A stretch of 54,208 bases of DNA from a virus: positions 1-54,208 of the IMG/VR virus record IMGVR_UViG_3300029787_000063. One strand, 5' to 3'. The position numbers and the translations under genes were made by a program. The notes beneath the pieces are model-generated. The model saw only the letters and a list, made by a program, of their open reading frames with translations. It did no database searches and had not been told where the DNA came from. Shown one piece after another: positions 11,922 to 38,471 of this stretch. Within the stretch, counting starts at the first letter, position 1, and each line of letters opens with the position of its first letter.

Positions 11922-14513
11922 TTATTTATTTATTAATTTTTCTACAGTACCATCATCGTATATGTAGAATAAAAGTTTATTTTTATTTATTATTGCAGGT
12001 CTACCTAATAGATCTGTTATCATTAGTAGTTTTTTATTACCTCTTTTTAATAGTGGTCCTGTCCAACCATCTGCACAATGATTATACGTAGCTTGACATA
12101 TTGTGTCCCACTCGTTTTCACAACAGTAATCATCTACACTTAGCACCCAAGAGTAACACTCATCGTTTAACCAATAAGGATTACCAGGTCCTGTTATACA
12201 ACTCGCTGCATATAAGCAGGAAGCTGAATCATTAACGTTTGCGGTAATATCATAATTGTACGCGCCGTTATCCATACACCCATAAACAACTTCAATACAC
12301 GAACCATTGTCAGTATTAGCCAACGAATCATAGTTAAGAGCAGTGCTATCCATGCAACCATAAATATAATCAATACAGCTAAAATCTTCTGTGTTTGCTT
12401 CCGGGTTATAGTTAAGCATACTAGGGTCAGTACACCCGTAAATATAAGGCACGCAAGAATTATTGTCTGCATTTGCTAGTGGATTAAAGTTAAACATCGT
12501 TGAGTCTGTACAGCCGAATACGTAAGGTATACAACTACCATCATCAGCATTAGCTAACGGGTTATAGTTAAACATTGTCGGGTCAGTACATCCATACAAA
12601 AATGCTATACACGTATCTACTGTATTAGCATTAGGGTTGTAATTATAAGCAAGTGGCTGCATACACCCGTATATAACCGGTATACATCCACCGTTATCAA
12701 CATTAGCCGTGGTATCATAATTAAACGCAGTAGAATCCATGCAACCAAATATAGCTATATCAACACAACTTCCATCATCAATACCAGCGACATATCCTTG
12801 GGTATAATATTGTAGATAACCTGGATTGGTACAACCAGGACTGTAATAACAAGTATCATTAGTATTTGCTAAAGCATTATAATTATAAGCTAGAGTGTCC
12901 ATGCAGCCTAAAACTACAGGTATACATTCAACACCACAATAAGGTTGAGCTTCGTAAATATCTAATGCGCTTCTATAATTTCTTAATTTATTTTCATTAG
13001 GACCAGGCCAAGGATTATTACCCTCATATATTATAGTTCCATAACTATTTTCTACTTTAAAAGAATTTTGTATTGTTTGTATATCTAGTTGTTGTGTATT
13101 CTGTTGAGGTGTAGGTATTTCAAAGTAGTAAAAATAAACCTCATCATTAGAATTAAGAGTTAATTCAAATGTATCAGAATAAATACCATTATCTAGTATT
13201 TTAAATTGCCATAAAGAATCTCCTTGCTCAACGCCTAACCAGCAAGCACCCCATGAATCACCACCATCATCAAATAATATTAAATCATAAGTACAAGGTG
13301 AAGTTCTTAACATACGATCTGCATTAGGATCATAATTAAAAGCAGCAGGATCAGTACAGCCATAAGTAGCAAATGTCATACAACTTCCATCATCAACCGT
13401 AGCTAAAGAATCATATTCTATATAAGCTGGAGTTGTACATCCATATATTATAGTATCATTATTACATTGATCAGATATATAAGGATTAGACGATGCTGTA
13501 TAACCAAAGTTAGGTGGACTTAATAAAAATACAGTATCTTCACAATCTACATTTGTAACTAAACATCCACCAACAACTGATCCACCACCAATACCATCAC
13601 CGTATGTATCGTCAATAGTAAATACTAATGTGTCTCCAATTGGAGCACAAACTTGAGTATGTATTGTTTGTCCTGTTTGTGTGTAGTTATAAGTACCACT
13701 AGGCACAGAATATATAACATTACCGTTAGCTGTTATTTGCCAAGATGTTTCACTTGGCCAGTTGTCTAGTTTTATAGCTACATCAAGTAATGTTTCTATA
13801 GAATCATTACAAGCAACATCCATTATACAAGAACCATCATCAACATTTGCCCAAGGATTATAGTTTGTAGCACTAGGATCAATACAGCCAAAATAATATA
13901 TACAAGTCCCATTATTATGCGTAGCTGCTGGATCATAATTAGAAGATACCGAGTCAGTACATCCGTATATAACTGTATATGGATCACTAATCATTATATC
14001 ATCTATAGATATATCACTAGTATAACTAGGACCTGTAATAGCTTTAAACTTTATTTTAAAAGAAGTCGTAGACATTATTGGATAATAAGCTAGCTTCCAA
14101 TGATTACCTTGATCTCCGGATATAGTATCTAATGCTGTATACCCATTGTTATCTAACACGCCTATTTCTAAATTACCCATTGCAGCACCATACATGTGGT
14201 ACCAAAATGATAATACTTTACCAGGTGTTTGTGACACATCAAATGTAGGCGTATATATTGTAAAAACTTTACCACCATAGTTTTGTCCAGATGACTCTAC
14301 ATAAAAATAAATACCATTACCCGTAGTATGATCTCCATTAGGACCAGTTGCTATTGAACTAGTTGGTCCTTGCGCTAACCACCAATCTCCAAAGTCATTT
14401 GTATCTTGCTCTAGCTCTACAAAATTTTCAAAGTCGTGAATCCAAGGAAAAGTATTAACTTGTCCTAAGCTTAATAATGGTAGTAAAAATAATATTAATA
14501 TAAATTTTTTCAT
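11922..14513 (-). CDS. Secreted MAM-domain protein with 13 Cys-rich repeats and type IX secretion sorting domain
   Basis: The start at 14513 overlaps the upstream stop as ATGA and is preceded by GGAGAA; an ATG four codons further up is less likely. The 863-residue product has a signal peptide (MKKFILILFLLPLLSLGQ). A MAM-like jelly-roll follows (about 25-180; WYHMYG, GNLEIGVLD and DISIDDIMI are hallmark strands). Then come 13 units of the form GC(T/M)D..x(F/Y)NY(D/N)..AN.DDGSC. The last ~38 residues (LLMITDLLGRP ... FYIYDDGTVEK) match the type A C-terminal sorting domain of the Bacteroidetes type IX system. In hosts such proteins are exported and anchored on the cell surface. In the phage it sits among late genes. 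It could coat the infected cell, block adsorption or be part of the virion. Domain assignment is strong; function is unknown. Confidence 0.85.
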   Translation of the reverse strand: MKKFILILFLLPLLSLGQVNTFPWIHDFENFVELEQDTNDFGDWWLAQGPTSSIATGPNGDHTTGNGIYFYVESSGQNYGGKVFTIYTPTFDVSQTPGKVLSFWYHMYGAAMGNLEIGVLDNNGYTALDTISGDQGNHWKLAYYPIMSTTSFKIKFKAITGPSYTSDISIDDIMISDPYTVIYGCTDSVSSNYDPAATHNNGTCIYYFGCIDPSATNYNPWANVDDGSCIMDVACNDSIETLLDVAIKLDNWPSETSWQITANGNVIYSVPSGTYNYTQTGQTIHTQVCAPIGDTLVFTIDDTYGDGIGGGSVVGGCLVTNVDCEDTVFLLSPPNFGYTASSNPYISDQCNNDTIIYGCTTPAYIEYDSLATVDDGSCMTFATYGCTDPAAFNYDPNADRMLRTSPCTYDLILFDDGGDSWGACWLGVEQGDSLWQFKILDNGIYSDTFELTLNSNDEVYFYYFEIPTPQQNTQQLDIQTIQNSFKVENSYGTIIYEGNNPWPGPNENKLRNYRSALDIYEAQPYCGVECIPVVLGCMDTLAYNYNALANTNDTCYYSPGCTNPGYLQYYTQGYVAGIDDGSCVDIAIFGCMDSTAFNYDTTANVDNGGCIPVIYGCMQPLAYNYNPNANTVDTCIAFLYGCTDPTMFNYNPLANADDGSCIPYVFGCTDSTMFNFNPLANADNNSCVPYIYGCTDPSMLNYNPEANTEDFSCIDYIYGCMDSTALNYDSLANTDNGSCIEVVYGCMDNGAYNYDITANVNDSASCLYAASCITGPGNPYWLNDECYSWVLSVDDYCCENEWDTICQATYNHCADGWTGPLLKRGNKKLLMITDLLGRPAIINKNKLLFYIYDDGTVEKLINK
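12205..13975 (-). repeat. Tandem coding repeats, 13 'GCxDx..NYxxxANxDxxSC' units
   Basis: This DNA stretch encodes 13 Cys-rich units of about 22-30 residues, some separated by longer insertions (for example between units 2 and 3 and between units 4 and 5). Each unit has one Cys near the start (YGC) and one near the end (GSC or DTC), plus Asp/Asn-rich loops that look Ca-binding. The eight units between about 12205 and 12745 are the most regular and follow each other directly, which suggests recent tandem expansion. Confidence 0.8.
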
Positions 14514-14884
14514 GCTTCTCCACATTTTTTTGAAGGATTACCTACTTGTCTCCAGTCTTGTTTAACCCAAGTTTTTAAGCTACCACCACTACTAGTACCT
14601 GTAACATTACTTTTACTAGATCTTTTATATTTACCAGCTTTACCAGCAGCACGCTTAGCTCTTATAACTTTTTGTCTTTCAGCTTGACTCATACTAGCTA
14701 TTTTAGCTTTAGGCAGACATACTTTTTTAGTGCCTCCGCCTTTAGCTTTTGTTGGTTTAACTTTTGTTGGAGAAGATTTACGGCAACTACCTTTAGCTCC
14801 TTTAGCTGTACCAGGAACTCGCTCGTAACCTTTCCAACAAGGTAATGGGCTATTTTTAGCAAACTTAGACTTAATATCGTACAC
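14510..14884 (-). CDS. Basic Cys-containing small protein, 124 aa
   Basis: The 124-residue protein is strongly basic. The N-terminal block PCWKGYERVPGTAKGAKGSC (16-35) resembles a short 'PCWKGYe.vG...k.g....C' module common in marine viral small proteins. A Lys/Ala/Gly linker follows. The C-terminus SLKTWVKQDWRQVG...KKCGEA resembles the 'W(V)K..W.d....k.CG' module (DUF5872-like, from memory). This is the first gene of a five-member basic cluster (14510-16416). A DNA-condensing or virion-interior role is inferred from charge. Confidence 0.66.
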   Translation of the reverse strand: MYDIKSKFAKNSPLPCWKGYERVPGTAKGAKGSCRKSSPTKVKPTKAKGGGTKKVCLPKAKIASMSQAERQKVIRAKRAAGKAGKYKRSSKSNVTGTSSGGSLKTWVKQDWRQVGNPSKKCGEA

Positions 14885-27598: not shown

Positions 27599-28060
27599 TT
27601 ATTTACTACTTTCATGTACTTCGATGCCTGTAGCAAACAGTTCTGCTTTATCAGTTGAATTATTTCTATACTCTACAGAAGCATAGTAACCCAGCATATT
27701 AGCCATGTTTGCCTTGTTATCTTTGCTAAACATTATAAAACTATCAGTGTTTAGTTGCGCAAAATATTGATTAAATAAATTTTGCTCCATATTAACAAAT
27801 AATTGTGTCCAAACTCGCTGTTCTCCTGTTGGTACTCCACCTTGAATAACCTGTATAACATCAAAATCTATATCTACAATAGGGCCTATTAAAATTATAT
27901 CTTCTTGATCATTTGTTAAGTGAGGTGTTCTTGTGCCACCACCTTCGTCTGGCCAGTTTCTAGCTGCTCCAACAGATGTTGGATTAGAAAAATAAACTAA
28001 ATCCCCTAGTTGTACAGAAACGTTTAATAGTCTTTCAAATCTTAATCTTATTGTTACCAT
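27599..28060 (-). CDS. Hypothetical virion protein, 153 aa
   Basis: The 153-residue soluble, mostly beta protein begins MVTIRLRFERLLNVSVQLGD. A short Gly/Arg loop (DEGGGTRTPHLTND) interrupts the strands, and a helix near the C-terminus (FIMFSKDNKANMANMLGYYA) is predicted. FSKD in this helix resembles the spacer motif of the giant protein but lies inside a domain. It sits between tail and ejection genes. A tail or collar role is likely from context only. Confidence 0.62.
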   Translation of the reverse strand: MVTIRLRFERLLNVSVQLGDLVYFSNPTSVGAARNWPDEGGGTRTPHLTNDQEDIILIGPIVDIDFDVIQVIQGGVPTGEQRVWTQLFVNMEQNLFNQYFAQLNTDSFIMFSKDNKANMANMLGYYASVEYRNNSTDKAELFATGIEVHESSK

Positions 28061-28078
28061 ATTTATTATTTTATATTA

Positions 28079-29755
28079 TTATCCAAGACTTATTGTATCT
28101 AAAGTGCCAGAACTACCCTCTAAAACTTCTATTAAAACTGTTTTTTCATCACTAGTGTTTGTACCATCACTCATTGTAAACGTAAATGAATCACTACCAA
28201 CAAAATTATTATTAGGTGTATATAAAAAAGCGTCTTGACTAGTGCTATAAATTGACATTGCACCATGACTAGGTGGTCTAACAACAGTACCTGTTTTGCT
28301 AGTTCTGTTAGTATCAGTGTCAAACTTTATCATATCTATACGTATAGCTGTGTTTTTAGCAGTAACAACACTTTGATTATAAGCATTTGGTTTTACAGAA
28401 ATAATTTTACTCATGTCTAGGTTGTAAGTTGTACTATTTTTACTAAACTTTTTAACAGAAATAGTACATGTTAAGTCTACATCATTAGCATCGCCATTAC
28501 CTGTATTACCACTTCCAACTTGTGTTATAATACCTTTAACTATAGAAGCATCACTATCAAAAGTTACTTCTGTTTGTTCTGGTATATCAACAGCTGTATC
28601 AAAAACAACTGTAGTTTTACCAGGCTTATCTTTTTCAAAATCTGCTGTTGAAATTGAATTAACATTTTCCTGCGTAAAAGTTAAAACAGTATTTGGTTTT
28701 ATAATTATTTTATCTTCTAATATAACGTCTTGACCGCACTTACTAATTCTATTAACAAAAGTATTTACATTTTGACCAGTTACCTCCATACCAGACTTTA
28801 TATCGTTTGTGTTATTTAATCTAAACCTATTTGTAGATTTAAATTTGCACGCATCAAAATCAATAATATTTTTATCATCGTCTAAACTAAAAATTACAAA
28901 CTTATCATGCGTTATTGTCCAACTAGCCGTAGATCCTGGAACTATATTTGTTTTTATTAAAGTACCATCTTCAGCTGTTATTTCTGTTCTTGTACTACTT
29001 GTAACAAAATAATATTTACTAGCAACGCCTGTTTGTCCGTCTCTATAGTTTATAGCTTTTATAGTATTAGATTTTATAATATTATTATTATAATCAGTGT
29101 TTTTAACGTATATATTACCAGCAGAATAACTAGTGTATTTTACAGCTATAGATAAAGTTAAATCTGAATAATTTTGTAGTTTTGTTGTTTTGTAAAAAGC
29201 AGCATCTGTTTTGTTAACGTCTGTACTAGTAAACGTTAATGCAGAAACACTAGAGTCTGAAGTATCTTTTCCAAAAGTTAACGTAACATCTGCTTGTTGT
29301 ATTAAAGTAAAAACTAAAGGCACAACGCCATCATAATTAGAAATAAAAGTGTCAGCACTAGGATTTATAGTTACTGTATAAGTTTCGTTTGTTATTTTAC
29401 CAATAGATCCTTTAACAGACTTTATTGAAGGAAACTTTTGAACTAAAGTGTAAATACCACTATTACCTATAGTTGCATTTTTAATTTCTTTTCTTAGTAT
29501 ACTACAACCTGAACTATCAGTTATAGTTATAGAAAACATGGCGTTTGAACTACCAGATATTTTTATAGGTAAGTTTTGTCCACTAGCATTTATACCTTGG
29601 TAAAACCTAGCGTCAACATTATTTATAGAAACACCTCTAATAATTTTTTGGCTACTAGAATATGACGTATTAGCAACTAAACCTTTGTTAATAGCTCTTT
29701 GCCTAATGTTATCAGGACTTCTTGATATACGATCTTCAAAACTATATTCTGTCAT
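28079..29755 (-). CDS. Tail protein with C-terminal cadherin/Ig-like domain, 558 aa
   Basis: The 558-residue protein is mainly beta structure with many Thr, Ser and Asn residues. The last ~80 residues (PPSHGAMSIY..., FLYTPNNNFVGSDSFTFTMSDG) match the bacterial Ig/cadherin-like tandem module ('G....tYtPn.nf.G.DsFty...DG'), usually Ca-stabilised and adhesive. The first ~60 residues look like an attachment region for the tail. It lies just downstream of the 2901-residue tail protein. Binding to host surface glycans is plausible but unproven. Confidence 0.72.
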   Translation of the reverse strand: MTEYSFEDRISRSPDNIRQRAINKGLVANTSYSSSQKIIRGVSINNVDARFYQGINASGQNLPIKISGSSNAMFSITITDSSGCSILRKEIKNATIGNSGIYTLVQKFPSIKSVKGSIGKITNETYTVTINPSADTFISNYDGVVPLVFTLIQQADVTLTFGKDTSDSSVSALTFTSTDVNKTDAAFYKTTKLQNYSDLTLSIAVKYTSYSAGNIYVKNTDYNNNIIKSNTIKAINYRDGQTGVASKYYFVTSSTRTEITAEDGTLIKTNIVPGSTASWTITHDKFVIFSLDDDKNIIDFDACKFKSTNRFRLNNTNDIKSGMEVTGQNVNTFVNRISKCGQDVILEDKIIIKPNTVLTFTQENVNSISTADFEKDKPGKTTVVFDTAVDIPEQTEVTFDSDASIVKGIITQVGSGNTGNGDANDVDLTCTISVKKFSKNSTTYNLDMSKIISVKPNAYNQSVVTAKNTAIRIDMIKFDTDTNRTSKTGTVVRPPSHGAMSIYSTSQDAFLYTPNNNFVGSDSFTFTMSDGTNTSDEKTVLIEVLEGSSGTLDTISLG

Positions 29756-29765
29756 AATTTATTTT

Positions 29766-32700
29766 TTAAGCTAATATATGTGAACAACCAACTGATATTG
29801 GACCATAAGTATACTCACATTCATCAGGATATGTTGTTATTTTTACTTCGTAATAAGTTGGATTACCATGTCCAAAACCGTCTACAGGGTTACCATAATT
29901 ACCGTCTATACCAGCTGTTACGCCACCAGGTAAAGTTTGTTGATTCCAAGTAACACCACCAGGAATATTAAATGTTTGTCCATCGTTAGGAGTACTTAAT
30001 AAAATTTTTCCACTACTAATAAAAGGAGGTGTTATTTGATATATTTCAGCTGTAAAGCTAGTAGCACCAACAGATGAAGATATTACATTAAAATTAACAC
30101 TTCCATTACAACAATTGTTTCCAAGTGTTATATTACAAACAGAAGGTATTGTAGTAACACCGTTAGCGTTTGTACCTTGAGAATCAACTACTAAGTTTGA
30201 CGTATTACAAGGTCCTGGTGGTGGAGGTGGAGCGCCAACGCAAGGAATAGTTACAATTTCTGTTACACCACAACCATCTACAGGATTAGTCATTTCTATT
30301 TCATAATCACCAGCAACTAAATTAGGCGCAGCATAGTTAGTAGAACCGTTATGAGATGATGTTAGTATATTAATACCTGATTGTGTTAAGTTTAAAGGAG
30401 TAGGTGTTAATCTTTTAACTTTAAGTAAAATATCTGATGTTATGTTAGTCCAAAAAATTTGTATCATACCACCATCAAGCGGATTATTTACGCCACAATC
30501 TGGTTGTATAGCTGGAGTTATAACAATATTATGTGAAAATAAGTTTGCAGGATTACAAGGTATTTGTGTACAATCAGATTGGCAATGCGTAAGTGCATCG
30601 CTAAACCCAGCAGATATAGCAGAAGAATTAGTATATTGTCCTAAACCAGTACCAGGATCATAACAAGTATATGGAGGTATATTACCAACGCCTGGTATGT
30701 TTATTCCACTAGCACCTGAACAATCGTAAGTAATAGACGTAGGTGGAACATTATATTCACAACTACAATCAGGTGTATTAGCAGCTGGATAATAATTATT
30801 AGCAGGACCAATCCAAGTTGGAGGTCTAAGTTGTGTTATGTACGGATCTGTTGTATTACCATCATCCATACAACCTGGAATAACAGGTGTAGGTGATGTT
30901 AAGTTTTGACAACCGTAAAGATAAGCTTCACCTTCATCGCAGCATAAGCTAGTAATTACACATTCACAGTACGTTGAGAAGCTACCGCTACCATCACCTG
31001 GATCTAAGCATTGACCATTTATACACTCGTATGTTTCTTCGTTTAATCCGCAAACAGCTTCGCAAGCTGATAAAGTAGGAAACTCACCATCTTGATCTTG
31101 CCTTTCAACACATGAAAAACCAGCACTACTACAAGGAGTTCTATGCATGTGACCAATTGAGAGATAATTACCTAAACCTTCTTGAGTTCCTATAGTTGGC
31201 ATTTCGCCTATAGAATTTACTTCAGATTTAAAATTAGCCCAAGACATACCGTTGTAAAAATTACCATTATACGGTGCAGCACTATAGTGAGTTGAGAAAT
31301 AATCTATTGCTTCTTGTGCTGTTAAAAAATATGTAACATTTCCAGCTGTAAGTGTGCTAGGAGCAGGTGAATAAGGAGTGTGTTTAAGAGGGGCAGGCGT
31401 TGCGTACCAGCCACCTGTAAAATCAACTCCATTTATCTGATAAAAATGGTCTGAGATCGTATCGGTCAAAGATGTAAAACCTTGTATTGCAACACCTTGG
31501 ATTTCATGATAGTCATCCCAAAATTTTAACGTTGGGTTTTGCCAAAAATATTCCCAAATTTGATCTATTACATCATTAAGACCATCTCTGTTTCCAGTAG
31601 GACCTGGGCCTATTGTTCCAGTAAATACTTGTCCACTAGCCTGTTGATAATGTGTCGTTGGATTAGGAGGTGTACCTAAACCAAGACTACTATAAATTTC
31701 TCCCCAAAATATAGAATCATAACCTTGTTCTTTATTATTAAGATCTAATCCATAATAACCATTCCAACCAATGCACTCCGTGCAATCATAAGAAGTATAA
31801 CCACCACTAATTATAGTTACCGCTTCAGTTCTATCTATACCTTGGTATGAAAACTCTCTTGTATCTATATTACCAGCTTTACCATCATCTAACCACTCAG
31901 TAGTTACACCTTTTATTTGTGAAAACCATTTACCTTCTTTTTCTTTAAACTCTTGCATACCACCTTCTTGCAAGTTAGTTAACATATTACTTACGTACCA
32001 GCCAGCATGTAAATAGTTATCCCAATATTCACCAGAGTTTAGCGTGTCAGGTGTTACTCTTGATTGTGTACCTTCATAATTTAAAGTATTAAAACTTTTA
32101 ACTGACTCAGGCGCTTCGTTAAATAACACTTCAATACTAGAATCATACTGATCGCCGTAAAAATTATTTCTTGGTTGAGATTCTACGTGATGTTCGTGTA
32201 AATGTCCTTCTTTAAACGTGTAGTAAGTATTGTTTAAACTAACACCACTTTCTTGTGCCCACGATTTAAAACTTGTCCAACCTTTTGCTCTTTCAGAAAA
32301 GCTTACAGTTGTATCGTAGTTACCACTAATATTAGTGTATGTTGAAACAGGATCAGGTTGAGTACCAAGAGCAACATGAGTTTGCCAAGCGCTAGGACTA
32401 GGACCAAACAAAGATACTACGTCTGTAAAAGCAGGCTCTGGATTAACAGTTAGTATTAGCTGACTAAAGTTAACAGTAACGCTAGTTACTACTGTATTAG
32501 GTGCTAAACCAGGACCGTTTAAAACCATACCTGCAGTAATAGCTTGTTGAGAAGAAGTTATTATACGACCAGTTGGTATATCATAGTTTCCACCACAACC
32601 ACAATTTTGACCTTCTATTTCAACTATAAAGTTATCAATAATATGTACAGGTTGTGCTACAGGATATTCGTTGTAATCTAATGTTAAATTATATTCATCT

Positions 32701-35700
32701 TTCTTTTCATCAAAGCTACCAATTAATCTATTAGCTAGTTTTAAATTATCAGCAAAATAATCACCCATACCAAAGTCTGATATTGGTGTAATACCATCTT
32801 GTGATAATCTTAACACTTGACCTCTAACTTTGTCTGCAAAATAAGATCTATAAGATTCGTTAACAAAAGACTCTGGATTTTTAGATATACCAAAATCACC
32901 AGCATAAGGTATTGTTTGGCCTAATACTCTGTCAGTAGCTGTAACATTAGTATTACCATCAGCATTAAATAAAGCGTCTTTATTAGCTAATATTTTAAAT
33001 ACTTTGTCTTCACAAAGCGTAACTAAATTTGTATTTCTAGCGTATAACTTTTGTATTGTACCATAAGAAGGATTTAAATCTTTTGTAATTTTTTCTGCTT
33101 GTATAAACTGGTTTAAATTATTTATACCAGACATTGAATTATATATACCTGAGTAAATTAAACCACTACCTCTTCTTTCTTCTTCATATGGTTCTTCTAA
33201 TGTGGTAGATGCTTTTGGTCCGTTATCTATAGTAACTTGATTAAAGTCATCACGCACTCTATCAGACTCAACTCCATTACCAAACGAGTAACAGTTATGC
33301 CAAGGTAGTGTAACTTTGTAATTATGTAAATTTCTATCTAACTCTATTTCACCAGTAAAAGCATTTACGTTTAATACGCTAGTTTCTGTTTTACCACCAT
33401 CAGCTCTTACAAAAGTTAGTATATCACCAATTAAAGGTAATAAAGCATTTGGATTATTACCTATGCTTAAAGGTTCGCCGTCAATATTGCACAATGTTAA
33501 TACGTTGTCTACTATACTTTGAACTCTAATATCTATAACAGGTCCTCCAGTAACACTAGCGTCTGTAGATAAAACTCTTAAAGCTCCACTAGGATTAGTA
33601 TTTGGATTAGGGTCATAACAATTAACTTTACTATTATAACGAGCTAAATCAAAAGATCTATGTACAGGCCCTACAAACTGCTCACCTGTTTTTTCGTTTA
33701 ATTCTATTGGATATATTTGTCCAACTTCATAATATATGTTTAAATCTACGTTTTCTTTTGGTTCAGTTTCAAATATAGCTGGATTTGTACTAGAATACTT
33801 TTCAGTATCATCAGTAACATAAGGAGATACAATTTGCCAAGTACAACTACCTGGAAATTTAGCCGCACCAGAAGTACCTTCTTTAGTTGGACCAGCAGGA
33901 ACAACTACACCACCTATAGAATATCCAGAATAAACACCATCAGAACGTATACCAGGAGCAGGTGTTGGTGGTAAGGCTGTGCCAGTTTTTAATACACTAC
34001 TACTATCAAAATGTGGTGTTAAATGCGGATTGTTAGTAGGTAAATACATAGATCCTTTTTCGCCTAAGCCTGACCCATCTTCATAAGCCTCGGCAACAAT
34101 CATGTATCTTCTTCTTCTGTTTATACCTTTCCACCAGTCTTTTACATACATTGGCCAAAAACCATGAGCTCGATTAGTGTCAGTTGGTCGTGTAATAGTG
34201 CTAGGCGCTTGTTCCCAACCACCACAACTATTAGCTTGATTGTTTATCGGATTCATTATTCTTGTAACCCAAGATCCAATAGCACTATTATTTGTTCTAA
34301 AAGACATACCAACATTTGTTATGCTTTTACCTATTTCTTGACTGTATCTCCAGTTTACTTGATCTTGACCTGTACCAGTTGCGTCTGAATAAAAATTATA
34401 TTCTGTAAAATAAACAGGAGCTGTAGAAGCACTATGACTTTTAATACCACCTGAAACCCACCAACCCGTGTCTACGATATTACTAGAAGTAGAATCAAAG
34501 AACAAATAAAGATCATCACACCAATCACCAAGTCTACAATAATTATAAAGACCAATACCTGGTTTAGAATCAATTGTATCAATAGTTCTAAAATTAATAT
34601 CTATTTCTCTTTGTGTTATACCCCAAGCCGTTAAATTTGCAGGATCAGGTGTTATTGTTTTATATAATCTTTGATCAGGATCTTCTGACCATCTCCAAAC
34701 AGTATTAGGCGTAGTTAAAAGATTTATAAATACAATGTCTTCAACGTGTTTAGCTAAAGTAGGATCTACATAATCAAAATGTAAAACTAAATCAGCCATA
34801 GTATCACCTTCGCCTGGCGCATCTTTTCCATTTACATCTGTACCATCAAGATCTTCACCAACTCCAGAATGAGATATTGTTATTATACCAGTGCCTTGAT
34901 AACTATTAACACCACCAACTAAACCACTATGATCTGGATTTACTCCACCAGCATTAGCATGGCCATCAATACCTAAAGACTGTATTATCTCACCACCATT
35001 ACTAGCTAAATTACCAAAATTAGCTTGGTCTTGTAAATAACCATTTAAACCTGTTCTAAGAACCGTTTGGTTTATATAATCTGCAGCTCCATTTATATTA
35101 TTAGCTGCTGCAAAAGCATTAAAATCATCACGATTAGGCGTATCTCTTACGCCAGTTGGAGATATTAAATAGTCTGGCTCTCCATTAGGACCTGTACCTT
35201 TATAAGAAGGGCCATTTATACCCCCAGCGTTTCCTCCTGTATACAAGTAATTACGAGTGTGAGATGTTTGTGAAGTAGCGGTACCCATAACCACAGGCAT
35301 ATCGTATCTGTTCATAGCATTAGTTTGCCCGTTTTGACTAGAAAACCAATTGTGTTTTGGAAACCATCTTAAACTTGCTGATTGATGAAAATGATCATCG
35401 AGTGTACTATTAGCAAAATCTCTTGTTACCCAAGGATCTTGATTTCTTAATTTAAAATAATGCTCTGTAGTTTTAAACCTTCTAAATCCTTCAACTCTAT
35501 CAATAAACCAACCTGAAGAATTAGCATCTCCATCGGCTAAATTATGACTAGCTTTACTCCAAAACTCTTGTCCATTTTCTCTACGCATATCAGCGTCATA
35601 ATTAGATTCACCTTGATTTTCAGAAATACTAATACCTCTTCTGTCTTGACCAAAAAAATGAGCTTCACTACCTTTTGAAAAATTAGAATCAGGATTTATA

Positions 35701-38471
35701 TATTGTACTCGTCTAGATGCTATGACTTGCCAATCAAGCGCGCTTGATATATTTTTTATTAAACTTTGTTCTAGTTGACTATCTCTTTTTATTTTAACAA
35801 AAAATCTACCATCAAACTCTGGTTTGTTTTCAACTATTCTTCTTCTTAGCTCAGCACTACCACCACCAGTATAAGTATTTATAGTACCATCTGCAGAAAG
35901 CACTTGAACGTCTGATTCAAACTTTTTAAATATATCAAACCTATAATCTGCTGTTTGATCTTTAATGCCTTTTATTCTATACCAATTACTAGCAAAATTA
36001 TTACCAGTAGAAGCTGTGCCAATAAATCTAATATCAAAATCTTTTAACGGCGCTGGATCTGATGCTGGAAAAGAAGGGTCAAGATTTAATATTTGAGTCC
36101 AACCAGAAGTTTCTACTAAAGTTTTGTCTATAGTCACAAACTTACCATCTAACTCTGGAAAACCAGTACCACCAGCCCCACCTAAATCAAAAGGCGAAGC
36201 TGTTTTTGTGTCAATTAAAACAGGTTGTTGAAGGTTAGTTGTTTTAATAAATAGTGGAGCTTCATTTTCTATTGCTATAACTTTATATCTAGCTGGAGAA
36301 TCAACAAAAACATCTGTATCGTGTTCTTTTTTAAGTATTAAAAATGTTTCTTCATTTATTTTATTTCTTTCAGACGAAGGAAAACTAATCCATATATTAC
36401 CATCTTCAGCGTTATACCAACGATCCATTGCTAAGTTATAATACTCACTTGATGTTTCTTTAACAAAAAATTTATATGATTTAGCCCACTCAGGATGTGT
36501 GTTGTATAATTGTGCTTCTAATTTATTTTTTTTATCAGCAATTATTTTTTCTAAATATAAAGAAGCCTTGTCTATTGTGCTATTAGAAAATACAGGTGTT
36601 TCTCTACCATACTCATCTATATAAGCAACACCTAGTTGATATGTTCTTAATGTTTTTACAGATCTAGTAGGAGAATAATAATTTTCATTATTATAAAAAG
36701 CATCTATTTGTTCAGGTAATAAATTAGGCGTCATAATATTATTTGAACTAACAGAAACTTTTACATCAACAGATATTTTTGATTCTGGATCTAATTCACC
36801 AAAATTAAACTCACTATAGTGTTGTAATGCTTTTGAGTTAACAGCAAACCTATTAAACATGTTATAGTTTTGCAAATAATTACCATATACTAATCTGTTA
36901 CCTACAACTTCTTGAGCTAAAGCTACTCTTGGTACGTTATCATACGGTCTTAATAATTGATTAGCAGGCAAAATAGCATGTATCATTTCTGATGTTATTC
37001 TAGTCCAGCCTCTAGTAAATTGACTAGATACTAAACCATTAGCAGTACCTGTTGTTCTTGGGCCAACAGCATTCCACTCACTATAATTAGTTGTAGCATC
37101 ATCTAAACTTGTTATATTATTAGACCAAGGTTCAAAACCTGGTACCCAGTCGTTTTCTAAACGCTTTATAGTTTTTACAGTATATATGTTTGGTGAGTTA
37201 GACTCTTTATAAAGTATATCTACAGATATAACGTCGTCTGGTATAGACTGTCCGTGTACAAAATCTTTTATAGCTAAAAATCTTAGATTATTAACCATAC
37301 CTAGATTATAACCTTCTTTTGGTAAATAATCAAACTCTTGAGGTAAAAATGCTACTTGTGAAAAAGGTGAAAAAGAAGAGTACTCACCATCTTCATATTT
37401 ATATCTTATACCAAACCTAGGAAATTTAAATTGAAATAAAGGTTCTGCTTGTTCTAGCTCTACATACCACTCATTATTTGCAGATATTAAATTTTTATCT
37501 CCAGACAATATTTTTAATATAGCCGCACCAGTAACTATATCATAAGTTGTTATTTCTGCTCTAACATATTTTGTTTTTTCTGACTGTAGCAAATATGAAG
37601 TAGAAGCTGAAGATTCATCGCTGTATATATTTATTATATCGCCAATTATAAAGTCTGGAAAACCAACTAAAGCACCAGCTGATATAAAGTTTAAACTATA
37701 GTTTTGTATTGGATCACTATTAGTGTCAAAAAAAGCATCTGTAGAATTAAAACTACCAGTTATATTTAAAGCGTAGCTAGCTCCAAATTGAGTTGGTAAT
37801 TGCCCTTGTTCTTCTCTAAGTTTATTACGCATTTCTAAAACAGGTGGAGCTGGTGGGCTTTTCTTTATAACAGTTACATGCTCATGAGTTAAATCACCTT
37901 TAGGATAATATTCTATATTAGCGTTGTTAGTTGATATATCTCTTACATATAATTGCGTTTGGCTTGTAAAATTAGGTGTACCTAATTTACATCTATCAAT
38001 ATGTATTCTTTTTGGTTCTGAATAGTTATCAGTCCAAAACAACATATTTTCTATTATGTTAATACCTGTAATTGTAAATGCTCTATCGAAATTTAATACT
38101 CTACCGCTTTCATTTCCCGGTATAGTTCCTGCAGGAAACAGGTCTACAACAACGGGTGTTGTTGTTTGTGTTTTGTAATCATATTCAGCTATTATATCAG
38201 AAGTACTACCAGCTAGCATCCAATATATTTTATCATGCTGTTCATTAACTATGCTACCAACACAATAAAAATCACCATTATTATTAGGATCAATTGTTAT
38301 TAGCGACATATTTAAATTACCCATAACTGTTTGCACAGTACCCATATCAGAAGTATCTGACGTAGCAACTTCTATGTTTAACGCATCTCTATATTCACCG
38401 TTAGGTACTAGTCTCTCATCAAGGTCTTTGTTCATACGACCTGATGAAAATCTATGATTCAGATTTGGCAT
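29766..38471 (-). CDS. Giant tail protein (tail-tubular-B-like N-terminus; Cys-rich and SprB-like C-terminus), 2901 aa
   Basis: The N-terminus (GRMNKDLDERLVPNGEYRDA, then NVEV-like strands) is typical of phage tail-tube or stabilisation proteins. A propeller-like region is visible at about 1815-1905 (LVTLCEDKVFKILANKDA ... YFADKVRGQVLRLSQDGI). Residues ~2430-2640 are Cys-rich, with three diverged 'C...C.DPG.G.G.y...C...C' units and one 'GCMDDG...AAN..DCSC' unit like the repeats of the type IX cargo. The last ~250 residues contain Ig-like modules ending in LVAGDYEIEMTNPVDGCG, which resembles SprB adhesin repeats of gliding Flavobacteria. It is very long for a podovirus tail protein and probably forms the tail knob or receptor-binding part. 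The N-terminal assignment is moderate; the C-terminal modules are clear by motif. Confidence 0.78.
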   Translation of the reverse strand: MPNLNHRFSSGRMNKDLDERLVPNGEYRDALNIEVATSDTSDMGTVQTVMGNLNMSLITIDPNNNGDFYCVGSIVNEQHDKIYWMLAGSTSDIIAEYDYKTQTTTPVVVDLFPAGTIPGNESGRVLNFDRAFTITGINIIENMLFWTDNYSEPKRIHIDRCKLGTPNFTSQTQLYVRDISTNNANIEYYPKGDLTHEHVTVIKKSPPAPPVLEMRNKLREEQGQLPTQFGASYALNITGSFNSTDAFFDTNSDPIQNYSLNFISAGALVGFPDFIIGDIINIYSDESSASTSYLLQSEKTKYVRAEITTYDIVTGAAILKILSGDKNLISANNEWYVELEQAEPLFQFKFPRFGIRYKYEDGEYSSFSPFSQVAFLPQEFDYLPKEGYNLGMVNNLRFLAIKDFVHGQSIPDDVISVDILYKESNSPNIYTVKTIKRLENDWVPGFEPWSNNITSLDDATTNYSEWNAVGPRTTGTANGLVSSQFTRGWTRITSEMIHAILPANQLLRPYDNVPRVALAQEVVGNRLVYGNYLQNYNMFNRFAVNSKALQHYSEFNFGELDPESKISVDVKVSVSSNNIMTPNLLPEQIDAFYNNENYYSPTRSVKTLRTYQLGVAYIDEYGRETPVFSNSTIDKASLYLEKIIADKKNKLEAQLYNTHPEWAKSYKFFVKETSSEYYNLAMDRWYNAEDGNIWISFPSSERNKINEETFLILKKEHDTDVFVDSPARYKVIAIENEAPLFIKTTNLQQPVLIDTKTASPFDLGGAGGTGFPELDGKFVTIDKTLVETSGWTQILNLDPSFPASDPAPLKDFDIRFIGTASTGNNFASNWYRIKGIKDQTADYRFDIFKKFESDVQVLSADGTINTYTGGGSAELRRRIVENKPEFDGRFFVKIKRDSQLEQSLIKNISSALDWQVIASRRVQYINPDSNFSKGSEAHFFGQDRRGISISENQGESNYDADMRRENGQEFWSKASHNLADGDANSSGWFIDRVEGFRRFKTTEHYFKLRNQDPWVTRDFANSTLDDHFHQSASLRWFPKHNWFSSQNGQTNAMNRYDMPVVMGTATSQTSHTRNYLYTGGNAGGINGPSYKGTGPNGEPDYLISPTGVRDTPNRDDFNAFAAANNINGAADYINQTVLRTGLNGYLQDQANFGNLASNGGEIIQSLGIDGHANAGGVNPDHSGLVGGVNSYQGTGIITISHSGVGEDLDGTDVNGKDAPGEGDTMADLVLHFDYVDPTLAKHVEDIVFINLLTTPNTVWRWSEDPDQRLYKTITPDPANLTAWGITQREIDINFRTIDTIDSKPGIGLYNYCRLGDWCDDLYLFFDSTSSNIVDTGWWVSGGIKSHSASTAPVYFTEYNFYSDATGTGQDQVNWRYSQEIGKSITNVGMSFRTNNSAIGSWVTRIMNPINNQANSCGGWEQAPSTITRPTDTNRAHGFWPMYVKDWWKGINRRRRYMIVAEAYEDGSGLGEKGSMYLPTNNPHLTPHFDSSSVLKTGTALPPTPAPGIRSDGVYSGYSIGGVVVPAGPTKEGTSGAAKFPGSCTWQIVSPYVTDDTEKYSSTNPAIFETEPKENVDLNIYYEVGQIYPIELNEKTGEQFVGPVHRSFDLARYNSKVNCYDPNPNTNPSGALRVLSTDASVTGGPVIDIRVQSIVDNVLTLCNIDGEPLSIGNNPNALLPLIGDILTFVRADGGKTETSVLNVNAFTGEIELDRNLHNYKVTLPWHNCYSFGNGVESDRVRDDFNQVTIDNGPKASTTLEEPYEEERRGSGLIYSGIYNSMSGINNLNQFIQAEKITKDLNPSYGTIQKLYARNTNLVTLCEDKVFKILANKDALFNADGNTNVTATDRVLGQTIPYAGDFGISKNPESFVNESYRSYFADKVRGQVLRLSQDGITPISDFGMGDYFADNLKLANRLIGSFDEKKDEYNLTLDYNEYPVAQPVHIIDNFIVEIEGQNCGCGGNYDIPTGRIITSSQQAITAGMVLNGPGLAPNTVVTSVTVNFSQLILTVNPEPAFTDVVSLFGPSPSAWQTHVALGTQPDPVSTYTNISGNYDTTVSFSERAKGWTSFKSWAQESGVSLNNTYYTFKEGHLHEHHVESQPRNNFYGDQYDSSIEVLFNEAPESVKSFNTLNYEGTQSRVTPDTLNSGEYWDNYLHAGWYVSNMLTNLQEGGMQEFKEKEGKWFSQIKGVTTEWLDDGKAGNIDTREFSYQGIDRTEAVTIISGGYTSYDCTECIGWNGYYGLDLNNKEQGYDSIFWGEIYSSLGLGTPPNPTTHYQQASGQVFTGTIGPGPTGNRDGLNDVIDQIWEYFWQNPTLKFWDDYHEIQGVAIQGFTSLTDTISDHFYQINGVDFTGGWYATPAPLKHTPYSPAPSTLTAGNVTYFLTAQEAIDYFSTHYSAAPYNGNFYNGMSWANFKSEVNSIGEMPTIGTQEGLGNYLSIGHMHRTPCSSAGFSCVERQDQDGEFPTLSACEAVCGLNEETYECINGQCLDPGDGSGSFSTYCECVITSLCCDEGEAYLYGCQNLTSPTPVIPGCMDDGNTTDPYITQLRPPTWIGPANNYYPAANTPDCSCEYNVPPTSITYDCSGASGINIPGVGNIPPYTCYDPGTGLGQYTNSSAISAGFSDALTHCQSDCTQIPCNPANLFSHNIVITPAIQPDCGVNNPLDGGMIQIFWTNITSDILLKVKRLTPTPLNLTQSGINILTSSHNGSTNYAAPNLVAGDYEIEMTNPVDGCGVTEIVTIPCVGAPPPPPGPCNTSNLVVDSQGTNANGVTTIPSVCNITLGNNCCNGSVNFNVISSSVGATSFTAEIYQITPPFISSGKILLSTPNDGQTFNIPGGVTWNQQTLPGGVTAGIDGNYGNPVDGFGHGNPTYYEVKITTYPDECEYTYGPISVGCSHILA

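What the first reader, a model, noticed from the sequence alone, without database searches (positions are those of the whole stretch)
29766..31100. Tail protein C-terminus with Cys-rich units and SprB-like adhesin module
The last ~450 residues contain three diverged 'C..C.DPG.G.G.Y..C..C' units, one GCMD/DCSC unit shared in style with the type IX cargo, and an Ig-like region ending LVAGDYEIEMTNPVDGCG, like SprB repeats of Flavobacterium gliding adhesins. Disulfide-rich modules are unusual in a phage protein assembled in the reducing cytoplasm. They may be host-derived modules used for receptor binding or mimicry.
Basis: partly seen in the sequence, partly recalled or inferred. Interest (0 to 1): 0.68.

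Follow-up and report, generated by a model that had tools for sequence, protein, structure and literature searches.

The report
Host-like cysteine modules on phage muzzle
A marine crAss-like phage ends its tail-tip "muzzle" protein with a fast-changing string of cysteine-rich and immunoglobulin-like modules, some of which are the kind that marine Flavobacteria build into their own secreted surface proteins, most likely so that the phage can grip its host.

Summary
The 2901-aa protein is the muzzle (tail-tip gate protein) of a crAss-like phage. Evidence: Pfam crAss_MUZ_C (E 8.7e-12), and a fold match of its core to the phicrAss001 muzzle, top of the PDB (Z 14.7, 2.2 A over 132 residues). The cysteine-rich C-terminus is real: 28 of 42 Cys lie in the last 455 residues, and Cys columns are 82% conserved against 29% for other columns in 12 relatives. 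It is an appended tail, not part of the conserved muzzle. Of 63 muzzle ORFs with complete ends, 22 have a tail with at least 10 Cys and 27 have no Cys after the core. The trait changed about 9 times on the core tree. Between the window and L001, identity is 91% in the body, 32% in the last 264 residues and 88% in the next gene. A model built only from units of host type IX secretion (T9SS) cargo recognises two of the three 'DPG' units. These units occur in 64 of 296 genomes of one Flavobacteriales order and in none of 394 other sampled Bacteroidota genomes. The window has no SprB repeat, but two relatives' muzzles end in a true one. Best reading: an exchangeable, probably disulfide-stabilised, adhesin-like stalk for host contact. 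Disulfides and binding are inferred.

The parts
29766..38471 (-). Muzzle (tail-tip gate) protein, 2901 aa
   Evidence: PF25729 crAss_MUZ_C E 8.7e-12; PHROG 14478 E 1.9e-133; tblastn to 87 phage records, rows shown ending at query residue 2135-2192
32127..32891 (-). Propeller part of the muzzle core, residues 1861-2115, matching phicrAss001 muzzle chain residues 1120-1260
   Evidence: VIA-align Z 14.7, rmsd 2.2 A, 132 aligned, 22% identity, rank 1 (7qol_P)
31911..32174 (-). crAss_MUZ_C domain, residues 2100-2187
   Evidence: Pfam
31140..31811 (-). Linker from the conserved QGI core end (about residue 2220) to the first Cys unit, residues 2221-2444
   Evidence: 71% identical to L001 (148 of 209) against 91% in the body; conserved QG end
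31050..31133 (-). A0: weak first Cys unit, residues 2447-2474
   Evidence: host-only HMM 3.9 bits, within shuffle range; C2454, C2470, C2474 kept in 12 of 12 tails
30939..31034 (-). A1: 'C..C.DPG.G.G.F..C.C' unit, residues 2480-2511
   Evidence: host-only HMM 27.8 bits; Cys invariant in 5 phages
30750..31034 (-). M1: composite module A1 + CCDEG stretch + B unit, residues 2480-2574
   Evidence: 10 Cys invariant in 5 phages; in 11 viral loci, 10 of them in muzzle ORFs
30759..30875 (-). B: diverged GCTDP-type unit GCMDDGN...DCSC, residues 2533-2571
   Evidence: C2534 in 12 of 12 tails, C2571 in 11 of 11
30570..30722 (-). A2: third 'DPG' unit with an insertion, residues 2584-2634
   Evidence: host-only HMM 15.2 bits at 2602-2617
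30240..30557 (-). Ig/Fn3-like domain with four conserved Cys (2639, 2659, 2734, 2744)
   Evidence: AF2 pLDDT about 60-85, seven strands; Fn3/Ig matches; Cys in 9 of 10 to 10 of 10 rows
29769..30209 (-). C-terminal variable domain, residues 2755-2901, after a proline-rich linker
   Evidence: no family; not confidently modelled (pLDDT about 22-43); 73 of 228 aligned residues identical to L001 over 2638-2901, lengths 264 and 601
11922..14525 (-). Separate phage gene P0002: signal-peptide-like start, MAM domain, GCTDP (B) array, short C-terminus like those of T9SS-cargo relatives; shares B units with other muzzles, not part of the muzzle
   Evidence: PF00629 E 2.4e-23; its B array matches muzzle ORFs of relatives

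Best explanation
The C-terminal ~680 residues are a modular, adhesin-like stalk added to the end of a crAss-like phage muzzle protein. The core (propeller, ring-joining, gate) is conserved; the stalk is exchanged between phages. It is built from small Cys-rich modules and Ig/Fn3 sandwiches of the kinds that marine Flavobacteriales put on T9SS-exported surface proteins. Inferred mechanism: six copies per virion surround the tail tip; the Cys pairs oxidise when the lysed cell releases the virion into seawater, giving rigid protease-resistant modules; the variable outer domains touch the host envelope, help dock the muzzle and so help set host range before the gate opens. Shown by computation: muzzle identity, modular and hypervariable tail, host-type units, conserved Cys. 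Taken from the phicrAss001 paper: hexamer, tail-tip position and gate role of the muzzle. Inferred: disulfide state, binding, effect on host range.
For: Muzzle identity. Location and gate role of the muzzle in phicrAss001, and existing tail disulfides: PMC10172136 passages. Tail absent from the four cultured relatives examined (3-6 Cys each, ends align before the Cys region). Cys-rich tail in 22 of 63 complete muzzle ORFs; Cys 5.5% of tail against 0.69% of body, medians. About 9 changes on the core tree, 3 forced by starred branches. Identity 1653/1822 in the body, 73/228 in the last part, 487/556 in the next gene. Host-type units. True SprB repeats in two relatives, Fn3 in 4 and Big_9 in 2 of 55 tails.
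Against: No binding, structure or virion proteomics exists for this phage. The tail model is poor overall (mean pLDDT 50.6), so pairing of the Cys is not shown. Cys number is even in only 14 of 22 rich tails. The place of the C-terminus on the muzzle surface was not determined; it follows the propeller, not the 'crass' tip domain, so it might point sideways. Other phages of the same group do without the tail (27 of 63 have no Cys there), so it is not essential to the muzzle.
Confidence: 0.62

Rival explanations
1. Spacer only: the Cys modules are rigid spacers or stabilisers with no ligand of their own, and only the outermost domain (Ig, SprB, Hint or other) matters.
For: Inner part (A0-A1-B) is better conserved than the outer part (100/134 against 73/228 identical to L001); tails end in different domains: SprB in L019 and L023, Hint in L016 (by content, from the family list and the sequence; L092 ends alike by eye), others unlike. 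In hosts the A unit often sits between the body and the sorting domain, a spacer position.
Against: Units vary in number between close relatives (L019 against L023) and occur in tandem, which can also suit ligand binding.
Confidence: 0.25
2. Homotypic docking or mimicry: because the muzzle bears modules like those of host surface proteins, it binds the partners of those proteins (or the same modules on the host surface).
For: A units restricted to one order among the Bacteroidota sampled (63 of 296 at E<=1e-6, counted from the list; 0 of 394 other phylum genomes); B arrays in hosts, muzzles and phage-encoded cargo.
Against: No evidence that these units bind each other; phage-encoded cargo genes are not tied to Cys-rich muzzles (6 of 20 Cys-poor records against 5 of 29 Cys-rich ones).
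Confidence: 0.12
3. The Cys bind metal (zinc or iron) in the reduced cytoplasm rather than forming disulfides.
For: Close pairs such as CEC, CC and CSC (sequence); assembly in the cytoplasm (general knowledge).
Against: The same units occur in host proteins with signal-peptide-like starts and T9SS sorting domains, where disulfides are the usual state (general knowledge); no zinc-binding family found in the window's tail.
Confidence: 0.1
4. Chimeric assembly: the tail was joined to the muzzle by misassembly.
For: The window is a virus record without a named isolate.
Against: Separate contigs L087, L001, L089, L093 and L095 carry the same module in the same frame after the same core.
Confidence: 0.01

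Closest known systems
phicrAss001 muzzle protein gp44 (PDB 7qol, 7qok; PMC10172136)
   Same: Propeller core superposes at Z 14.7, 2.2 A over 132 residues; same place in a crAss-type gene block.
   Different: The window protein has an added ~680-residue Cys-rich tail. The paper's passages mention length variation by insertions into the crass and IG2 domains, not such a tail.
Muzzle proteins of cultured flavobacterial phages (phi38:1 gp097, Gundel_1 gp060, elemoC gp24, Panino CDS0075)
   Same: Same gene order and core; 35-36% identity in the core for the first three.
   Different: 946-1493 aa with 3-6 Cys, no Cys-rich tail.
[quoted passage not shown]
   Same: Tandem domains of a Bacteroidetes type in phage tail proteins, suggested by the authors to serve host binding; partly spread by horizontal transfer.
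   Different: No BACON match in the window's tail; here the carrier is the muzzle itself and the modules are Cys-rich T9SS-cargo units.
SprB repeat (PF13573) of Flavobacterium gliding adhesins
   Same: Present above cut-off at the C-terminus of two relatives' muzzles; similar 'G.Y...D..GC' look in the window.
   Different: No match in the window.
T9SS-exported cargo of marine Flavobacteriales
   Same: Share A and B units.
   Different: Cargo has a signal peptide and a sorting domain; the muzzle has neither by sequence and no NCBIfam match.
Zeta crAss-like tail fibre proteins with Ig-like domains and a DGR-mutated lectin (PMC12386605, passages)
   Same: Ig-like adhesin-type stalk in a crAss-like tail protein.
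   Different: A fibre protein rather than the muzzle, varied by a retroelement rather than by module exchange.

Membership tests
Crassvirus muzzle protein | crAss_MUZ_C domain (PF25729) | tested here: met
   E 8.7e-12, 45.8 bits against cut-off 27
Crassvirus muzzle protein | Propeller fold like phicrAss001 gp44 | tested here: met
   Rank 1 and 2 by VIA-align, Z 14.7 and 13.8; Foldseek rank 1 and 2 but weak E, 7.3e-3
Crassvirus muzzle protein | Place after portal, coat and small structural genes | tested here: met
   Portal PHROG 6547 and virion protein PHROGs upstream; same order as phi38:1
Crassvirus muzzle protein | Hexamer at the tail end | not testable with these tools
   no virion data for this phage
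SprB repeat (PF13573) | Profile match over the curated cut-off | tested here: not met
   0 matches in the window at E<=10; met in relatives L019 and L023 (40.2 and 43.7 bits, cut-off 28)
T9SS cargo | C-terminal sorting domain (TIGR04183 or similar) | tested here: not met
   No NCBIfam match for muzzle or tail
T9SS cargo | Sec signal peptide | tested here: not met
   N-terminus MPNLNHRFSSGRMNKD by eye; no signal-peptide program was run
Host-type A ('DPG') unit | Match to a model of host units only, above shuffles | tested here: met
   27.8 and 15.2 bits for two units; the third, 3.9 bits, is within shuffle range
B (GCTDP) unit | GC.D..A.NY.P.A...DGSC pattern | tested here: inconclusive
   Strict pattern not met in the window; diverged form with conserved Cys present
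Ig/Fn3-like sandwich (residues 2639-2744) | Fold match | tested here: inconclusive
   AF2 pLDDT about 60-85; best Z 8.7 (RbmA), many Fn3 rows at Z about 7; no Pfam match
BACON domain | Pfam match | tested here: not met
   No Pfam family for the last 524 residues at E<=1

The most novel reading that the evidence does not exclude
Marine crAss-like phages dress the tail-tip gate with modules taken from the host's own T9SS surface coat, so that docking uses the contacts that hold that coat together. Some of the same phages also export, through the host's T9SS, their own cargo proteins carrying B modules, which could occupy those contacts in an infected cell and block later phages.
Probability: 0.1. 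Interest if true: 0.85.

Novelty: new variant of a known kind. Interest (0 to 1): 0.6.

Why it matters
The muzzle is the conserved gate of crAss-like phages and is thought to contact the cell surface, but its partner is unknown. A tail built from lineage-specific T9SS-cargo modules gives a clue to the host (small-genome marine Flavobacteriales) and a concrete receptor hypothesis. It also shows the muzzle as a site of module exchange in marine relatives, alongside the tail-fibre and BACON variation known from the gut.

Tried and rejected
SprB membership of the window: rejected. The whole-tail Pfam scan missed the SprB repeats of L019 and L023 that short-segment scans found, presumably through HMMER's composition filters, so its negatives are weak.

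M1 in bacterial genomes: none by back-translated pattern plus tblastn, but a profile search of 8 genomes found the A part in some. The first negative was a limit of method and is not used as evidence of absence.

Coupling of the phage-encoded T9SS cargo (P0002-like) with Cys-rich muzzles: not supported. Separate cargo ORFs were found in 5 of 29 Cys-rich records and 6 of 20 records chosen as Cys-poor. Two of those 20 (L017, L055) have split muzzle ORFs and uncertain labels. Two short B-unit-only ORFs (G328, G344) were not counted. Records are fragments.

Prevalence counts: of 80 muzzle loci, 9 were dropped because the core profile stopped early (split or cut ORFs) and 8 more because the ORF ran off the contig, leaving 63. 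An earlier count of 67 still held split ORFs and gave the same 22 rich tails. The 80 loci are the best by score of 558, so they lean to near relatives.

phicrAss001 muzzle by sequence in the PDB: not found with A1, A2 or phi38:1; found only by fold. PDB phmmer match to PIT54 (E 1.1): chance.

Literature: four papers hold both 'muzzle protein' and 'phage'. I saw passages of all four and none of those passages speaks of a Cys-rich muzzle tail. Searches (listings only) showed none in their titles or abstract starts either. Subscription papers are not held, so this is no proof that it is unpublished.

Full report
What the protein is. The finding lies at the end of the ORF 29766-38471(-), 2901 aa. 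The ORF matches Pfam crAss_MUZ_C at residues 2100-2187 (E 8.7e-12) and PHROG 14478 (E 1.9e-133). tblastn finds 87 phage records: 86 are named after flavobacterial hosts (Flavobacterium, Cellulophaga, Tenacibaculum, Maribacter) and one is labelled only Caudoviricetes. In the 30 rows shown the match ends at query residue 2135-2192. Gene order (terminase, portal, virion proteins, then the muzzle) is that of phi38:1. A model of residues 1722-2230 (mean pLDDT 60.2) has the phicrAss001 muzzle as its two best PDB matches. Foldseek is weak (E 7.3e-3); the second alignment is clear: Z 14.7, rmsd 2.2 A, 132 residues, chain residues 1120-1260. Tail proteins of phages GP4, Pa223 and VP1 come next. So the 'tail protein' is a crAss-like muzzle. 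In phicrAss001 it forms a hexamer at the tail end that gates the channel and probably touches the cell (PMC10172136, passages).

The observation. Residues 2458-2901 hold 26 of 42 Cys; 28 lie between 2447 and 2896. Ten structural ORFs around the muzzle (25347-46784) have 0-4 Cys each. Twelve relatives with alignable tails (the window included) keep the Cys: mean identity to the window 82% in 27 Cys columns against 29% in 358 others. In the M1 module (residues 2480-2574) all 10 Cys are invariant in five phages. An HMM made from 14 host units only gives the window 27.8 bits (2480-2505), 15.2 bits (2602-2617) and 3.9 bits (2459-2474); the best of 300 shuffles of the tail gives 5.2. Across the tails collected, 57 strict B units are found against none in 50 shuffles, and 21 A units against a mean of 0.26. 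The window's own B unit is too diverged for the strict pattern.

An appended, exchanged tail. The core ends at a conserved 'QGI'; cultured relatives have 946-1493 residues, 3-6 Cys and no such region. Of 80 IMG/VR muzzle loci (best of 558), 63 have a full core and a complete end: 22 tails hold at least 10 Cys, 14 hold 1-9 and 27 none. Rich tails are 280-1124 aa, with Cys at 5.5% against 0.69% in the body, medians. On a tree of 65 cores the trait needs about 9 changes; branches with strong support force 3; shuffled labels need about 21. So it is clustered but has switched several times; for example L065 (24 Cys) is sister to L086 (none). Between the window and L001, identity is 1653/1822 in the body, 148/209 in the linker, 100/134 in A0-A1-B, 29/59 in A2 and 73/228 in the remainder (264 against 601 residues), and returns to 487/556 in the next gene. 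M1 was found in 11 viral loci, 10 of them in muzzle ORFs (four of the 11 are contigs already held as L001, L016, L019 and L023). L087, from another contig, has it at 92% identity in the same frame, so misassembly is excluded.

Host-type modules. B arrays: 439 of 501 pattern matches in the 84,980-species collection encode them; most of the 77 loci kept are named Flavobacteriales. A units: in 64 of 296 genomes of the order of one such host (E<=1e-3; three of the 64 supplied the host units of the model), up to 21 copies per genome. They are in none of 394 other genomes sampled across the phylum (E<=1e-6; the centre genome itself matches). Of 30 host loci, 26 gave ORFs with an A unit and a complete 3' end. 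In 12 of the 26 the C-terminus matches the T9SS sorting domain TIGR04183; by eye 10 more share a short 'LGR...LFYIYDDGTVEKRIVIE' type of ending. That this short ending is a sorting signal is inferred: a phage protein related to P0002 (L226) has a canonical-looking domain instead. The A unit often lies 50-90 residues from the end, directly before the sorting domain. The muzzle carries the unit without that domain. Host to phage is the simpler direction, since hosts use it in many proteins, but no tree of so short a unit was attempted.

Ig and SprB. AF2 of the tail is poor overall (50.6) but gives residues 2639-2744 as a seven-stranded sandwich at pLDDT about 60-85. PDB matches are Fn3/Ig-like (Vibrio RbmA Z 8.7; many Fn3 at Z about 7), which shows a common fold only. 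The SprB model does not match the window, but true SprB repeats end the muzzles of L019 and L023 (40.2 and 43.7 bits, cut-off 28). Other tails carry Fn3 (4 of 55), Big_9 (2 of 55) or a Hint domain (1 of 55), the last evidently L016 by its sequence.

How it works. Shown by computation: muzzle identity, conserved Cys, host-type units, variable tail. Taken from the phicrAss001 paper: six copies, tail-tip location, gating, and disulfides already present in crAss tails. Inferred: the Cys oxidise after lysis and the stalk contacts the envelope. The rivals are a pure spacer, homotypic docking on T9SS coat proteins, and metal binding. The C-terminus follows the propeller rather than the distal 'crass' domain, so the stalk may leave from the side; this was not resolved.

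Phage-encoded cargo. But having such a cargo gene is not tied to having a Cys-rich muzzle (5 of 29 against 6 of 20), which weakens any joint mechanism.

Novelty. Host-type repeats in crAss tails are known (BACON, PMC6949934 abstract; Ig and lectin fibres, PMC12386605 passages). What appears new is the carrier (the muzzle), the modules (T9SS-cargo Cys units, SprB) and the recurrent exchange. I found no description in the searches listed under Tried and rejected.

Noticed in passing
window 11922-14525 (-); L238-L317: Phage-encoded T9SS-type cargo with GCTDP arrays is common in marine viral contigs: of the 80 best B-array loci (of 586), 50 ORFs end in a long sorting-domain-like stretch and 15 in the short LGR...YDDGT ending by regular expression, 3 are muzzles and 12 other.
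   Followed up: partly
L016:7590-10961 and L092 (C-terminal ends): One of 55 scanned tails matches Hint (intein-like) families, evidently L016 by its C-terminal sequence, and L092 ends alike by eye; it could self-cleave or attach the tail covalently.
   Followed up: no
L017, L055, L042, L040; L004 (Panino): In several relatives the muzzle ORF stops inside the core (near profile position 212-235) and may go on in the next ORF: a split gene or a frameshift (Panino).
   Followed up: no
window 28079-29755 (-) and 27599-28060 (-): The genes downstream of the muzzle (one with a Big_9 domain) resemble the C-terminal tails of muzzles in other phages (L024; L010, L054, L075 and others), so muzzle tails and neighbouring genes seem to exchange or fuse parts.
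   Followed up: partly
L097:6001-6159: A GCMDDGN unit like the one in M1 lies in a non-muzzle ORF of another phage contig.
   Followed up: no
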